Origin: an uncultured Methanosarcinales archaeon
GTDB lineage: Archaea > Halobacteriota > Methanosarcinia > Methanotrichales > Methanotrichaceae
Assembly (NCBI GenBank): GCA_903871465.1
Contig: CAIQHB010000033.1
Coordinates: 1-40,090, forward strand
Length of the DNA: 40,090 bases
Reading direction: 5' to 3'
Below the pieces are notes generated by a model. The model was not told where the DNA came from and ran no database searches. It saw only the letters and a program-made list of their open reading frames with translations. Made by a program: the position numbers and the translations under genes. Of the stretch, positions 258 through 6,793 are shown piece after piece. Position 1 is the first letter of the stretch. Each line of letters starts with the position of its first letter.

Positions 258-1238
258 CTGAGGGCGTTTATTTTATTGCTGGCTCTCCTTGCGCTAATCG
301 GCATGGCCATAGCCGATAATGAAGCGCAAAAGGAGCAACTAGAGGAAAATAATGCAGCATACGACAATCCGACGACATTAGTTGAAGAAAATCTGAAATT
401 CAGCATGGAACAGAATGTAAGCGGGACCGGCTTCTATGCAGACTACAAATACGCTTTGATGCCAGATGCTAGCGGCACTGAAGGGCATCTATTCAATGGC
501 GTCGAGGCTAGAAACAAAGCTCACGGAAGCGGGAAAATCGCTACCAATTCGAATATGTATGCAGAGAGTTCATTCACCAATAAGACCTGGATTAACGGAG
601 TCTACGATGAAAATGGCGAGGTAATTCAAGAGACTCCAGATGACGAAAAAACTACAAGCGTTGTTCAGATGAATGAAAACGGCCAAATGGTCTACAGCCC
701 CTTGGTAATGGCCATAGGTTCAAGATATTACGATTTGCATCCTATTGCGTTCAATGCGTTGCTAACAGAAGAAGACTGGATAAAGAACCGTGATGGTTTG
801 AATTCCTTGCATCATAGTGTGGATCAAGCTCATGGACTGAATATAGCGTTTGATGCTCAATCCGATGCAATAAATAACACAATGAACGTAGACGAGAATT
901 TGGTCAATGGCCGGGCACACTTTGGAGTACTTCAGCTGGTAGGAATCCCTGTGGACGAAATGCCGGAAGAAGATTCGGGGGATGTTCAAGTCCTCGGCCT
1001 GGCAATGAAAGCCTGGAAAAAGCCTTTGATTGAACTGGATGAGGATTATGTGGGGAACTATCATATAAAGAAAAATATGAATCTATACACCTATTCAGAT
1101 GATGATTTGAGAGAAGATCCATGGCTGCCCTGCTGTTCTGGCGGATTTATGGATATGAACTACGAAGATGCAAAAGCCTTCAAGTCCGCTAAGGGCATCT
1201 TCGATTGCACTTGCTTCAAGGTCCCCAGCATGGCGTAA
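258..1238 (+). CDS. Secreted protein of unknown function, probable CTG start
   Basis: No family is recognised. The reading frame has no ATG near its 5' end. A strong Shine-Dalgarno AGGAGG lies at 245-250, and the codon 7 bases after it is CTG at 258. Starting there gives an Arg followed by an unbroken hydrophobic run ending in AIA, a convincing signal peptide. The next possible start, TTG at 276, is 25 bases from the SD and lacks the positive residue. An ATG at 253 is out of frame and stops after two codons. The mature part is acidic and Asn-rich with several N-x-S/T sites. The C-terminus carries a CC pair and a CTC triplet within the last 45 residues, which could form disulfides or bind metal. 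It probably works outside the cell. I am sure it is coding; the start codon is inferred. Confidence 0.75.
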   Translation: MRAFILLLALLALIGMAIADNEAQKEQLEENNAAYDNPTTLVEENLKFSMEQNVSGTGFYADYKYALMPDASGTEGHLFNGVEARNKAHGSGKIATNSNMYAESSFTNKTWINGVYDENGEVIQETPDDEKTTSVVQMNENGQMVYSPLVMAIGSRYYDLHPIAFNALLTEEDWIKNRDGLNSLHHSVDQAHGLNIAFDAQSDAINNTMNVDENLVNGRAHFGVLQLVGIPVDEMPEEDSGDVQVLGLAMKAWKKPLIELDEDYVGNYHIKKNMNLYTYSDDDLREDPWLPCCSGGFMDMNYEDAKAFKSAKGIFDCTCFKVPSMA

Positions 1239-1451: not shown

Positions 1452-1855
1452 TTGCAGTTATTACGCAGCTTGACCCTTCCCGGATTGCCCATTCCCCAGA
1501 AAGAAGGGATTTTATGCAAGCAAGGCGTTTATCCCGAAAGAAAGAAGGCCTTCCGGGGAGTCATGCGCGAATAGGTGTCAGCCTCAAAACTGCAATGCAG
1601 CGAATTCCTCATGAGAAGAAGCTATCATTCCGGAGGAGAGGTTTTCCCTGGGTTCCTTCTACAAAGCCTTTGAGTCATTTGACGATTCCATCCTATTTCT
1701 ATTGTTTTTTGTAGTACAGTTTATACTAAGAAAATTAATGAGGAATAAAGCATATGCGTAATGGGTGAAGCTTGATGCAAATAGTCATCATTTTCTTCCA
1801 GGAAAACTCGTCCTGATGCATGAAGAATGCTTAAGAAAGACTTAATAGCCAATAG
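1452..1855. other. Intergenic stretch with no supported gene
   Basis: About 400 bases without a convincing gene. A 66-residue open frame at 1514-1714 is Arg/Lys/Pro-rich, lacks a ribosome binding site and resembles no protein I know. The GC-richer part may be decayed coding sequence. Confidence 0.4.
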
Positions 1856-1870: not shown

Positions 1871-1900
1871 TCAAGCATAAAGAAACGGAGGTGATTTCAG

Positions 1901-2017
1901 ATGTGTTGCCATACAGATGATAAGCATGAACATGGACATGAGCATGATGGCGAGAAGCATGTGCATGAGCACATTCACGATGCAGAACACAAGCACGGAC
2001 ATAAGTGCTGCCATTAA
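1901..2017 (+). CDS. 38-residue Cys/His-rich metal-binding peptide
   Basis: A short gene preceded by GGAGGTGAT (1887-1895), an almost ideal archaeal Shine-Dalgarno, five bases before the ATG. Of 38 residues 13 are His and four are Cys. The chain begins M-C-C-H and ends C-C-H, with spaced H-x-H pairs and acidic and Lys residues between, so two CCH clamps flank a His-rich middle. It has no signal peptide or membrane segment and should be cytoplasmic. Composition recalls Hpn-type nickel-storage peptides and metallothioneins, but this is analogy, not proven homology. It lies about 700 bases before cbiM on the same strand and in the same neighbourhood as the CDF exporter with similar His-rich tails, which suggests Ni/Co/Zn buffering. 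A T-run follows the stop. The SD and composition make it very likely real; the function is inferred. Confidence 0.72.
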   Translation: MCCHTDDKHEHGHEHDGEKHVHEHIHDAEHKHGHKCCH

Positions 2018-2027
2018 TTCCAGAATA

Positions 2028-2033
2028 TTTTTT
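2028..2033 (+). terminator. Oligo-T after the Cys/His-rich peptide gene
   Basis: Six T in an AT-rich stretch, 11 bases after the stop codon. This fits an archaeal oligo-T terminator and a single-gene transcript. Confidence 0.4.
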
Positions 2034-2181: not shown

Positions 2182-2376
2182 TCAATAAAAGATCCGGACC
2201 TTCCTGATCGGGTTATTCCTTTTATCCACTACAAGGACTTCCTCACCATCTTCAATTCCAGGATCCGAGCTAATCACTTGCCTGGAGAATAGGCGACCTC
2301 CGCGGGCAATAAAAGGCACTGCTGCATCCGATACCACTACCTTGCTGATTGGCGATTCACAGATTGTTTCAGACAT
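2182..2376 (-). CDS. PUA-like domain protein, short and probably truncated
   Basis: The 64-residue product resembles the PUA RNA-binding module at the C-terminus of archaeal tRNA-guanine transglycosylase-type enzymes. It has a start like VSDAAVPFIARGG, then LFSRQVISSDPGI, then the strand GEEVLVVDKRNNPI. The usual final strand (a Gly-Arg-Ala segment) is missing: after NNPI the frame runs into unrelated residues and stops. A GGAGAG about 8 bases before the ATG supports translation. It could be a minimal RNA-binding protein or the remnant of a larger one that lost its catalytic part and last strand. The PUA resemblance is by eye. Confidence 0.5.
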   Translation of the reverse strand: MSETICESPISKVVVSDAAVPFIARGGRLFSRQVISSDPGIEDGEEVLVVDKRNNPIRKVRIFY

Positions 2377-2729: not shown

Positions 2730-3425
2730 ATGCATATAATGGAGGGATTCTTACCGCTCTATTGGTGCGCGTTTTGGTTTGCGCTTTCGCTGCCAGTAGT
2801 GGCTTATGGTGCTTACAAGATGAATAAAATAATAAAGAGTAATCGCGACGTCCTGCCCTTGCTGGCCGTATCCGGTGCCTTCATCTTCGTTCTATCCTCA
2901 CTGAAGATGCCTTCCGTCACAGGAAGCTGCTCCCATCCTACGGGTACAGGCATGGGTGCGATACTCTTCGGGCCGTGGATTACTTCGGTGCTATCAATCA
3001 TAGTCCTGATCTACCAAGCCATATTTCTGGCCCATGGCGGCCTGACCACCTTGGGAGCCAACACATTCTCCATGGGTATAGCCGGACCAATAGTAGGCTA
3101 TCTGGTCTATAAAGGGGCCATGAAGTGGAATGTGAATATGTACATAGCCGTATTTCTGGCGGCGTTGTTCGCGGATTGGGCCACATATATAGTTACATCC
3201 ATCGAGCTTGCTCTGGCCTTCCCCGCCGCTTCGGGAGGTGTGCTGGCATCTTTCGAGGCGTTCCTCGCTGTCTTTGCCGTAACCCAGGTTCCACTGGCCA
3301 TAGTGGAGGGAGCTGTAACTGCGCTCATGTTCAAGTACATCGTCCAGCTCAGAAGCGACGTTTTGCTGAAGCTAAATGTAGCGTCTCCCAGCATTATTAA
3401 CAAGCTGAAGGAGATGTCGGTATGA
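2730..3425 (+). CDS. cbiM: CbiM, substrate-binding membrane subunit of the ECF cobalt/nickel transporter
   Basis: CbiM forms the metal-specific membrane component of an energy-coupling-factor importer. The 231-residue chain begins MHIMEGFLP, the family hallmark: the N-terminal amine and His2 are known metal ligands. A conserved S-C-S-H-P-T-G-T-G segment near residues 66-74 follows, and about six hydrophobic helices run through the rest. GGTGAT (2721-2726) precedes the ATG, and removing the initiator Met is unnecessary for the start choice because the His must be second. It is the first gene of the operon, overlapping cbiN by four bases. Whether Co or Ni is the substrate cannot be settled from sequence; a methanogen needs both. 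Confidence 0.93.
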   Translation: MHIMEGFLPLYWCAFWFALSLPVVAYGAYKMNKIIKSNRDVLPLLAVSGAFIFVLSSLKMPSVTGSCSHPTGTGMGAILFGPWITSVLSIIVLIYQAIFLAHGGLTTLGANTFSMGIAGPIVGYLVYKGAMKWNVNMYIAVFLAALFADWATYIVTSIELALAFPAASGGVLASFEAFLAVFAVTQVPLAIVEGAVTALMFKYIVQLRSDVLLKLNVASPSIINKLKEMSV

Positions 3426-4526: not shown

Positions 4527-5768
4527 ATGACATTCATCCTTGAAACCAGAAACGTTGGTTATTCTTACGGAGACGGAACAAAGGCCCTGAAGGACGTGAG
4601 CATATCTCTGGAGGAAGGGGAAAAAATTGCCCTGGTAGGGCCCAACGGTGCAGGTAAATCCACTTTGATGCTGATGTTCAATGGTATTCTGCGCCCAAGC
4701 GCGGGAGAGGTTCTCTTCCACAACCAGCCCCTGCAGTACGATTCCGCCCGTCTTCGGGAGATAAGGCGCAAAGTAGGGATGGTCTTCCAGAACTCGGACG
4801 ACCAGATCTTTGCCCCTACGGTTTACCAGGACGTAGCCTTTGGACCTGTGAACCTGGGCTTTCCCAAAGATAGAGTGAAGCTGTTTGTTGATTACGCCCT
4901 GCAGTATGTAGGGCTTTCCGGCTACGAACGCCGTCCTCCTCACCACCTCAGCGGTGGCGAGAAGAAGAGGGTAGCCATAGCAGGCATCCTGGCCATGGAG
5001 CCCGAGGTTCTAATTCTGGACGAACCCACCTCCAACCTGGATCCGGCCAGCTCTGAGGAGATCATGGAGATGCTGGAGGAGCTGAACAGTGGAGGCAAGA
5101 CCATGATCATCTCCACACATGATGTGGAGCTGGCCTACCGCTGGGCAGATGAAGTAATTCTGATGGAGGATGGCGGGGTGCTTCGCAAAGGTATAGGGCC
5201 AGAGATATTCGGTGATGAAGACCTGATTAAGAGGGCGAGGCTAAAGCTGCCGATAGTGATGGATCTCTATAAGGAGCTAGTCAATCGGCATTTGCTTGAC
5301 GACTCCAGGCCGCCCAGGAACATCCTGGAATTGACCGATCTTGTGGAGTCCAGAACCCGAGGGACGAATTCTCGGGTGACCCTTGGCAAGATCTACATCA
5401 GCAATGTGGACGATGCGAGCCCTGAAGAGATCAAGAGCATCCTGAATGGATCACACGTAAATTATACTGGAGCCATGGGGACGAACGCCAAGGCTCTGGC
5501 TGAACAAGCCAAGAAACCTCTGGACTTCACCTACGGCGTCATAGACAAGTGCATCCTCAAGGCTCTGACAGGCAAGACCTCACTGATAATGACCTCCGGC
5601 GGAATGGTGGACCACTCCATCAAAAGGATTCGGGATTATTGCGAAGAGTCTGGAGCAGAGATAGAAGTGGTCAAGCTTTCTCCTCTTGCAGAATCTAGCG
5701 TGAACCCAGACAGTCAAGAGATATCGAGCCAAACGGATTCCACAAAGCCGGCGGAGGCGGCCCAGTAG
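4527..5768 (+). CDS. cbiO: CbiO, ECF transporter ATPase with a C-terminal extra domain
   Basis: This ATPase powers the cobalt/nickel importer. Residues 1-~240 are a standard ABC domain: Walker A GPNGAGKST (~38), Q-loop NSDDQ, signature LSGGEKKR (~141), Walker B VLILDEPTSNLD (~160) and the switch His in STHDVE. At 413 residues it is about 130 longer than a minimal CbiO. The extension includes GKIYISNV, YTGAMGTNAKALAEQA, DFTYGVIDKCILKAL and LIMTSGGMVDHS, an alpha/beta-looking domain that I recall from other archaeal CbiO proteins but whose role I do not know; regulation by metal or corrinoid is possible. It starts 6 bases after cbiQ and its stop overlaps the next start by one base. Confidence 0.92.
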   Translation: MTFILETRNVGYSYGDGTKALKDVSISLEEGEKIALVGPNGAGKSTLMLMFNGILRPSAGEVLFHNQPLQYDSARLREIRRKVGMVFQNSDDQIFAPTVYQDVAFGPVNLGFPKDRVKLFVDYALQYVGLSGYERRPPHHLSGGEKKRVAIAGILAMEPEVLILDEPTSNLDPASSEEIMEMLEELNSGGKTMIISTHDVELAYRWADEVILMEDGGVLRKGIGPEIFGDEDLIKRARLKLPIVMDLYKELVNRHLLDDSRPPRNILELTDLVESRTRGTNSRVTLGKIYISNVDDASPEEIKSILNGSHVNYTGAMGTNAKALAEQAKKPLDFTYGVIDKCILKALTGKTSLIMTSGGMVDHSIKRIRDYCEESGAEIEVVKLSPLAESSVNPDSQEISSQTDSTKPAEAAQ

Positions 5769-6793
5769 TGCCGCACGAAGAACACATGCACGATGAAGGG
5801 CACATGCATGATGAAGAAAGCCATTGCGGCCATCACCATGTACATGGAGTCGTAGATCCCGCCCTGCTGGCTACTCAAAAAGGGATTTCGACCGTCAAAT
5901 GGTCCTTTGTTGTGCTGCTGGCAACGGCTCTGGTTCAGGCGGTGGCAGTCTCCTATTCGGGGAGCGTCGCTCTTCTTGCAGATACAATCCACAATCTTGG
6001 TGATGCTGCTACTGCCATCCCGCTCTGGATCGCCTTTGCCATGGCACATCACAGGGCAAGTAAGCAGTTTACCTACGGCTACGGTCGGGTCGAAGATCTG
6101 GCGGGTCTGGCAATTGTGCTTCTCATCCTCTTTAGCGTCATCGTTGCCGGTTATGAATCTATCAATCGATTATTTCATCCTCAGATTGTGACCAACCTCT
6201 GGGCAGTGGCGCTGGCATCTCTGATCGGTTTCATTGGCAACGAGGCCGTGGCTGTCTATCGCTGCCGTACAGGGAAAGAAATCAACAGTGCGGCTCTTGT
6301 GGCTGACGGCTGCCATGCCAGGGTGGACGGCCTGACCAGTCTGGCGGTCTTCATTGGTGCCCTCGGTGTCTGGCTAGGATATCCCTGGGCAGATCCCTTA
6401 ATCGGCTTTATCATCACCTTTGCCATCCTCGGTATCGTTTGGAGTTCTGTGAAGGTGGTATTCTGTCGCCTCATTGACGGGGTAGATCCAGAGGTGGTAG
6501 ACGATGTCAGGGAGGCTGCGAGTCATGTCGCGGGTGTGGAGGAAGTCACAGATGTTCGTGTGAGGTGGCTAGGACATCAGCTTCATGCTGAAATTAACCT
6601 GGCAGTGTCCGATGAGATCTCTTTGAAGGAGGGACACGAGATCGCCAAAGAGGTTCAGCACCAGCTTCTCCATCACCTGAGTTACCTATCAGGAGCCACC
6701 ATCCATGTCGATCCGCTGAAATCTTCGGGAGAGCAGCATCACCATCAGGGAGAGCACAAGCATGGAGACCTGCCCCTCCACTTGCATCTCTGA
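5768..6793 (+). CDS. Cation diffusion facilitator (CDF) exporter with His-rich ends
   Basis: CDF proteins export divalent metals (Zn, Co, Ni, Cd, Mn) in exchange for protons. The frame starts at GTG 5768, overlapping the cbiO stop by one base. The N-terminal ~28 residues contain ten His among Glu/Asp/Met, and the C-terminus has a second His-rich tail. Six helices follow, with metal-site motifs H-x3-D in helix 2 (ADTIHNLGDA) and helix 5 (ADGCHARVDG), an HD/HD arrangement usual for Zn-type CDFs. The soluble C-terminal domain ends near residue 305. Its place as last gene of the cbiMNQO operon suggests it ejects excess Co or Ni when the importer is expressed, or serves metal homeostasis generally. 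Substrate is inferred. Confidence 0.9.
   Translation: MPHEEHMHDEGHMHDEESHCGHHHVHGVVDPALLATQKGISTVKWSFVVLLATALVQAVAVSYSGSVALLADTIHNLGDAATAIPLWIAFAMAHHRASKQFTYGYGRVEDLAGLAIVLLILFSVIVAGYESINRLFHPQIVTNLWAVALASLIGFIGNEAVAVYRCRTGKEINSAALVADGCHARVDGLTSLAVFIGALGVWLGYPWADPLIGFIITFAILGIVWSSVKVVFCRLIDGVDPEVVDDVREAASHVAGVEEVTDVRVRWLGHQLHAEINLAVSDEISLKEGHEIAKEVQHQLLHHLSYLSGATIHVDPLKSSGEQHHHQGEHKHGDLPLHLHL

What the first reader, a model, noticed from the sequence alone, without database searches (positions are those of the whole stretch)
1901..2017. Unannotated 38-residue CCH...CCH His-rich peptide with an ideal ribosome binding site
Thirteen His and four Cys in 38 residues, arranged symmetrically with Cys-Cys-His at both ends, behind GGAGGTGAT. 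It is too short for usual gene callers and lies near a cobalt/nickel importer and a His-tailed CDF exporter. It could be a new archaeal Ni/Co/Zn buffer or metallochaperone.
Basis: partly seen in the sequence, partly recalled or inferred. Interest (0 to 1): 0.85.

Follow-up and report, generated by a model that had tools for sequence, protein, structure and literature searches.

The report
Conserved His/Cys nickel-cobalt microprotein
A 38-residue histidine- and cysteine-rich protein with no match in the family libraries searched is a real, selected gene shared by acetate-eating methane-making archaea and a group of sulfate-reducer-type bacteria; it keeps turning up beside nickel and cobalt uptake and cofactor genes, so it is probably a small metal buffer or carrier for those metals.

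Summary
Window 1901-2017(+) encodes MCCH…CCH (13 His, 4 Cys in 38 residues) behind GGAGGTGA. It is a real gene: intact relatives occur in 27 of 50 genomes of the archaeal family (Methanothrix and kin). All keep the ATG, a ribosome-binding site and the terminal CCH (one MCGH exception); 17 columns are invariant and median dN/dS is about 0.1. A 53-residue relative (MCCHNKDKHEHEH…CCH) occurs in 16 of 29 genomes of a Desulfobacca-type bacterial class.

In both domains the gene lies near Ni/Co genes far more often than chance. CbiM is within 6 kb of 8/32 archaeal loci (0.4 expected) and 6/17 bacterial loci; CbiK is within 6 kb of 6/17. Single lineages place it behind F430 genes cfbC-cfbB, beside nikR, or beside a CDF exporter. 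One bacterial paralogue is fused to an HMA metal domain.

No Pfam, NCBIfam or PDB match was found. The closest known architecture is domain B of Helicobacter HspA (CCH…CCH, two nickel ions). Most likely role: cytosolic Ni(II)/Co(II) buffer or metallochaperone. Gene and Ni/Co linkage are shown; metal binding and function are inferred. Two cultured strains carry it.

The parts
1901..2017 (+). 38-residue CCH...CCH His/Cys-rich microprotein gene
   Evidence: translation; 30 intact family homologues, 17 invariant columns, purifying selection
1887..1894 (+). Shine-Dalgarno GGAGGTGA, 6 nt before the ATG
   Evidence: sequence; GGAGG or GAGGTGA present at -12 to -15 in all 30 intact archaeal copies
1831..1848 (+). 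probable archaeal BRE/TATA promoter (TTAAGAAAGA-CTTAATAG), about 60 nt before the ATG; weak match in the window itself
   Evidence: position matches TATA-like boxes in relatives; 27 of 30 upstream regions have a box with at most 2 mismatches against about 19% of control positions; the window copy has 3 mismatches to TTTAWATA
2028..2033 (+). T-run just after the stop, possible archaeal terminator
   Evidence: sequence only; inference
2182..2376 (-). 64-residue PUA-domain protein, convergent neighbour (linked in 7 loci, not necessarily part of the function)
   Evidence: PF01472 33.4 bits; same arrangement in 7 loci
2730..3425 (+). CbiM, Ni/Co-specific membrane component of an ECF importer
   Evidence: PF01891 202 bits
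3422..3745 (+). CbiN
   Evidence: PF02553 85 bits
3738..4520 (+). CbiQ-like ECF T component
   Evidence: position in the operon and reading of the sequence; not scanned against a family library
4527..5768 (+). CbiO ATPase with C-terminal extension
   Evidence: TIGR01166 257 bits, above cut-off
5768..6793 (+). CDF cation exporter with His-rich N- and C-terminal tails
   Evidence: PF01545 and PF16916; TIGR01297 above cut-off

Best explanation
The gene makes a small, probably unfolded cytosolic protein that binds Ni(II) and/or Co(II) through its alternating histidines and its two Cys-Cys-His ends. It buffers metal brought in by CbiMNQO- or NikABCDE-type importers and hands it on to tetrapyrrole metallation (F430 in the archaea, sirohydrochlorin/corrin via CbiK in the bacteria) or other Ni enzymes, or to a CDF exporter. 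It works like a free-standing version of domain B of Helicobacter HspA. Shown: real protein-coding gene under selection; invariant ligand residues; linkage to Ni/Co uptake and cofactor genes in two domains. Inferred: metal binding, metal identity, direction of transfer.
For: Ligands: of 17 invariant columns in 28 archaeal sequences, 15 are Cys or His; residue 3 is Cys in 27 of 28. Bacterial copies keep the same N-terminus (KHEH) and CCH end. Selection: differences per pair fall 6.4/4.9/17.5 on codon positions 1/2/3, median dN/dS 0.10; bacterial 0.087. Linkage: CbiM within 6 kb in 8/32 archaeal loci, expected 0.41, naive P 6e-9; bacterial CbiM 6/17 and CbiK 6/17, union 10/17, about 1% expected per locus. 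CfbC and CfbB above cut-off upstream in L043 (the same pair upstream in G019 by sequence); NikR above cut-off and a NikA-like SBP in L053; CDF next to the second copy in G001; DUF4198 near copies in G240, G247, G248, G263 and G621. A paralogue fused to an HMA domain (L084:892-1233). Precedent: HspA domain B has C94-C95-H96...C111-C112-H113, 8 His, two Ni per monomer (PMC5116745); Hpn sequesters nickel in vivo (PMC4671568).
Against: No transcript, protein or metal-binding data. About half the archaeal loci have no recognisable Ni/Co gene nearby, though several contigs are short. The gene is absent from many relatives that do carry CbiM, including all six of one genus, so it is dispensable for Ni/Co use. 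Co-located genomes are related, so naive P values overstate independence; about four archaeal and four bacterial arrangements look distinct. His/Cys ligands also bind Zn and Cu.
Confidence: 0.68

Rival explanations
1. A Zn(II) or broad heavy-metal buffer, metallothionein-like, whose neighbourhood with Ni/Co genes reflects general metal clustering.
For: Cys4/His13 composition suits Zn and Cu; CDF transporters next to it in the window and in G001 often export Zn; HMA fusion in L084 suggests soft metals.
Against: Linked genes recognised are Ni/Co-specific (CbiM, CbiK, NikR, CfbB/CfbC); no Zn importer or regulator was recognised nearby.
Confidence: 0.17
2. A regulatory leader or sensor peptide: translation of the His codons controls a downstream gene.
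For: Short ORF, His-rich, own ribosome-binding site, upstream of cbiM in the window and in G261.
Against: In most loci it lies downstream of, convergent to, or divergent from the metal genes; no constant downstream gene; length and CCH ends conserved at the amino-acid level with codon changes; no Rfam element over the window stretch.
Confidence: 0.06
3. A chance or decaying ORF, or an antisense protein is the real product.
For: CAY-rich DNA leaves two antisense frames open in 27 and 28 of 29 copies.
Against: Antisense start and stop positions are not conserved; the one antisense frame that would put the variable bases in the wobble position is closed in 28 of 29; the sense frame has conserved ATG, RBS, stop and dN/dS about 0.1.
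Confidence: 0.01
4. A dedicated adaptor for a specific protein, for example a subunit of the CbiMNQO importer or the partner of a chelatase, and not a free buffer.
For: Directly behind cbiO in G239, G241 and G245; near CbiK in six loci.
Against: Partners differ between lineages, which fits a general metal carrier better than one fixed partner.
Confidence: 0.08

Closest known systems
Domain B of Helicobacter HspA (GroES C-terminal extension)
   Same: Cys-Cys-His at both ends of a His-rich stretch (C94-C95-H96 ... C111-C112-H113), small, linked to nickel sequestration and delivery (PMC5116745, PMC4671568).
   Different: Here a free-standing gene of 38-53 residues, longer His stretch, no GroES domain, in methanogens and Desulfobacca-type bacteria; no alignable homology shown; disulfides unlikely in the cytosol of strict anaerobes (inference).
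Hpn / Hpn-2 nickel-storage proteins of gastric Helicobacter
   Same: Small stand-alone His-rich protein; Hpn has 28 His in 60 residues and two Cys pairs (PMC4671568).
   Different: Hpn's His are mostly clustered into stretches (PMC4671568); here His alternates with E/D/K/A and CCH caps both ends; unrelated taxa.
Metallothioneins
   Same: Short, ligand-rich, probably folding only around metal.
   Different: His-dominated with four Cys, not Cys-dominated; no Pfam match.
HMA / CopZ-type metallochaperones
   Same: One bacterial paralogue is fused to an HMA domain (L084).
   Different: The stand-alone peptide has no HMA domain or CxxC motif.

Membership tests
HspA domain B-type nickel module | CCH at both ends of a His-rich stretch | tested here: met
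   HspA positions from PMC5116745
HspA domain B-type nickel module | extension of a GroES co-chaperonin | tested here: not met
   stand-alone ORF with own start, RBS and stop
HspA domain B-type nickel module | binds about two Ni(II) per chain | not testable with these tools
   needs a metal-binding assay
Hpn nickel-storage family | sequence homology to Hpn | tested here: inconclusive
   no Pfam, NCBIfam or PDB match, but Hpn was not compared directly
Hpn nickel-storage family | small free-standing protein, over 30% His, with Cys pairs | tested here: met
   13 of 38 His, two Cys pairs
Metallothionein | match to a metallothionein profile / Cys-dominated composition | tested here: not met
   no Pfam match at E up to 10; 4 Cys against 13 His
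Leader peptide / attenuator | constant position just upstream of the regulated gene | tested here: not met
   neighbours and orientation vary

The most novel reading that the evidence does not exclude
A microprotein family shared across two domains of life is a dedicated Ni/Co carrier that feeds tetrapyrrole metallation: nickel into coenzyme F430 in Methanothrix and metal for CbiK in Desulfobacca-type bacteria. It would supply a metallochaperone step for F430 and would have moved by gene transfer between partners that share anoxic habitats.
Probability: 0.2. Interest if true: 0.85.

Novelty: new variant of a known kind. Interest (0 to 1): 0.64.

Why it matters
Aceticlastic Methanothrix produce much of the world's biogenic methane and depend on nickel (methyl-coenzyme M reductase with F430, CO dehydrogenase) and cobalt (corrinoid proteins); how they buffer and deliver these metals is poorly known (general knowledge). 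A selected microprotein family with a clear Ni/Co gene context, present in two cultured strains, makes that question directly testable. It also shows that the CCH-His-CCH design known from Helicobacter HspA exists as a free-standing gene in two unrelated lineages.

Tried and rejected
Pfam, NCBIfam and PDB searches of the peptide: nothing, even at E up to 10. Rfam over the window's first 9 kb: nothing credible, so no known riboswitch. tblastn of a bacterial copy against plasmids: nothing. Wider archaea: no relatives outside the family among 238 class genomes or 393 phylum genomes; one copy in a Methanospirillum hungatei MAG (L076), which may be a binning error. Antisense product: rejected. Leader peptide: rejected on variable context. 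No structure prediction was run because a 38-residue, metal-dependent, probably disordered peptide would give an uninformative model. Weak hits in G027 and G042 (E above 0.2) are chance. Thermoleophilia hit L082 is the tail of a larger protein and not counted. Literature searches found no report of this family, but the library holds open-licence papers only.

Full report
1. Observation. The ORF at 1901-2017(+) reads MCCHTDDKHEHGHEHDGEKHVHEHIHDAEHKHGHKCCH. It has 13 His and 4 Cys, with CCH at both ends, and GGAGGTGA at 1887-1894. The window's genome has a single copy.

2. It is a gene. A protein search of all 50 held genomes of the order (one family) found relatives in 28; a profile search added a second copy in G001. 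Of 32 loci, 30 are intact. G001 contig 33 has lost its N-terminus and G047 carries an internal stop/frameshift. Every intact copy has ATG and a GGAGG or GAGGTGA box at -12 to -15. Seventeen columns are invariant (M1, C2, H4, H9, H11, H13, H15, H20, H22, E23, H26, H30, H32, H34, C36, C37, H38), and C3 is 27/28. Differences per pair fall 6.35/4.92/17.46 on codon positions 1/2/3; median NG86 dN/dS is 0.10 over 82 unsaturated pairs, all below 1. Two antisense frames are open through CAY-rich composition, but their ends are not conserved and the frame that could explain the wobble pattern is closed in 28 of 29. A TATA-like box sits about 60 nt upstream: 27 of 30 have at most 2 mismatches against about 19% of control positions. 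The window copy is one of three weak ones, with 3 mismatches. So the gene probably has its own promoter; this is inference.

3. Distribution. None was found in other families among 238 class genomes or a 393-genome sample of the phylum. A scan of 84,980 species genomes found the Methanothrix group, one Methanospirillum MAG contig (L076), and Desulfobacca-type bacteria carrying a 53-residue form. The latter read MCCHNKDKHEHEH...DGHHQHGHTCCH behind AAGGAGGTGA or AAGGAGGGA-type boxes. Within that bacterial class 16 of 29 genomes have it; in a 395-genome sample of the phylum only that class plus G621 (that G621 lies outside the class is inferred from its absence). One bacterial copy (G251) has lost the ATG before its CCH. 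The archaeal N-termini MCCHNKDKHEHAH (G003) and MCCHSKDKHEHPH (G008) match the bacterial MCCH[NS]KDKHEHEH almost letter for letter, which favours common descent with transfer between domains over convergence. The direction is unknown. The scan patterns did not cover all variants, so other taxa may have been missed. The bacterial class name is inferred from record titles (Desulfobacca, Syntrophobacterales).

4. Context. Using CbiM positions in all 50 family genomes, 8 of 32 loci lie within 6 kb of CbiM against 0.41 expected (naive P 6e-9). In the bacterial class, 6 of 17 lie near CbiM and 6 of 17 near the chelatase CbiK, 10 of 17 near either, with about 1% expected per locus. These P values ignore kinship. 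Distinct arrangements include: upstream of cbiMN-cbiO-CDF (window); downstream of a different cbiM-Q-O set (G017, G030, G035, G001); behind cbiM and a small CbiN-like gene (G018); 5.7 kb before cbiM (G026); directly behind cbiO in bacteria (G239, G241, G245); behind cbiM-Q-O-DUF4198 (G248, G263); before cbiM (G261); between CbiM and CbiK genes (G252). Elsewhere: behind cfbC-cfbB, both above curated cut-offs (L043); beside NikR and a NikA-like binding protein (L053; NikA model below its equivalog cut-off, so the metal is not certain); beside a CDF exporter (G001 contig 50). A paralogue in G240 replaces the C-terminal CCH by an HMA domain (L084:892-1233). The gene moves around but keeps landing among Ni/Co genes.

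5. Mechanism. Conserved letters are almost only metal ligands; the spacer letters vary among E, D, K, A, G, S and T. This fits a flexible chelator. No signal peptide is apparent from the sequence, so it should be cytosolic (inference). With importers on one side and tetrapyrrole metallation or efflux on the other, a Ni/Co buffer or carrier is the most economical role (about 0.68). Zn/general buffer 0.17, fixed-partner adaptor 0.08, leader peptide 0.06, not a gene 0.01.

6. Known relatives. No family-library or PDB match. The nearest design is domain B of Helicobacter HspA: Cys94-Cys95-His96 ... Cys111-Cys112-His113, eight His, two Ni per monomer, needed for nickel content and tolerance (PMC5116745). 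[quoted passage not shown] PMC4671568). This works like them but is not filed as a member: there is no GroES domain and homology was not shown.

7. Testability.

Noticed in passing
window 2182-2376 (-): A 64-residue PUA-domain microprotein gene convergent with the peptide; the same pair occurs in seven archaeal loci.
   Followed up: partly
L084:892-1233 (+): A relative of the peptide (MCGRDKDQHEHAH...) fused to an HMA heavy-metal domain, behind a DUF4198 gene and upstream of an intact CCH peptide.
   Followed up: partly
L128, L129, L133 and others, just after the peptide stop: In the bacterial copies the stop is followed by a conserved GGAAAGCCACG...GCCACGAAGGC...CGTGGCTTTCC-T-run element, possibly a terminator with two alternative partners or a spread palindromic repeat; no Rfam match.
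   Followed up: partly
G017, G018, G032, G035 loci, about 0.5-0.9 kb upstream of the peptide: A conserved 122-140 residue protein ending WHHSCxLC, no Pfam match, lies upstream of the peptide, in three of the loci between cbiO and the peptide.
   Followed up: partly
window 276-1238 (+): A 320-residue protein without Pfam match that recurs near the peptide or CbiM in G017 and G018.
   Followed up: no
L076 (Methanospirillum hungatei MAG M59 contig), from 292: A 42-residue CCH peptide on a contig filed under another methanogen order; a binning error or a transfer.
   Followed up: no
G001:C33:6579-6656(-) and G047:C46:9888-9998(-): Decayed copies: one lost its N-terminal half, one has an in-frame stop.
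   Followed up: yes
L142:7654-7854 (-): Cobalamin riboswitch close to the bacterial peptide gene of G621, on the opposite strand.
   Followed up: no
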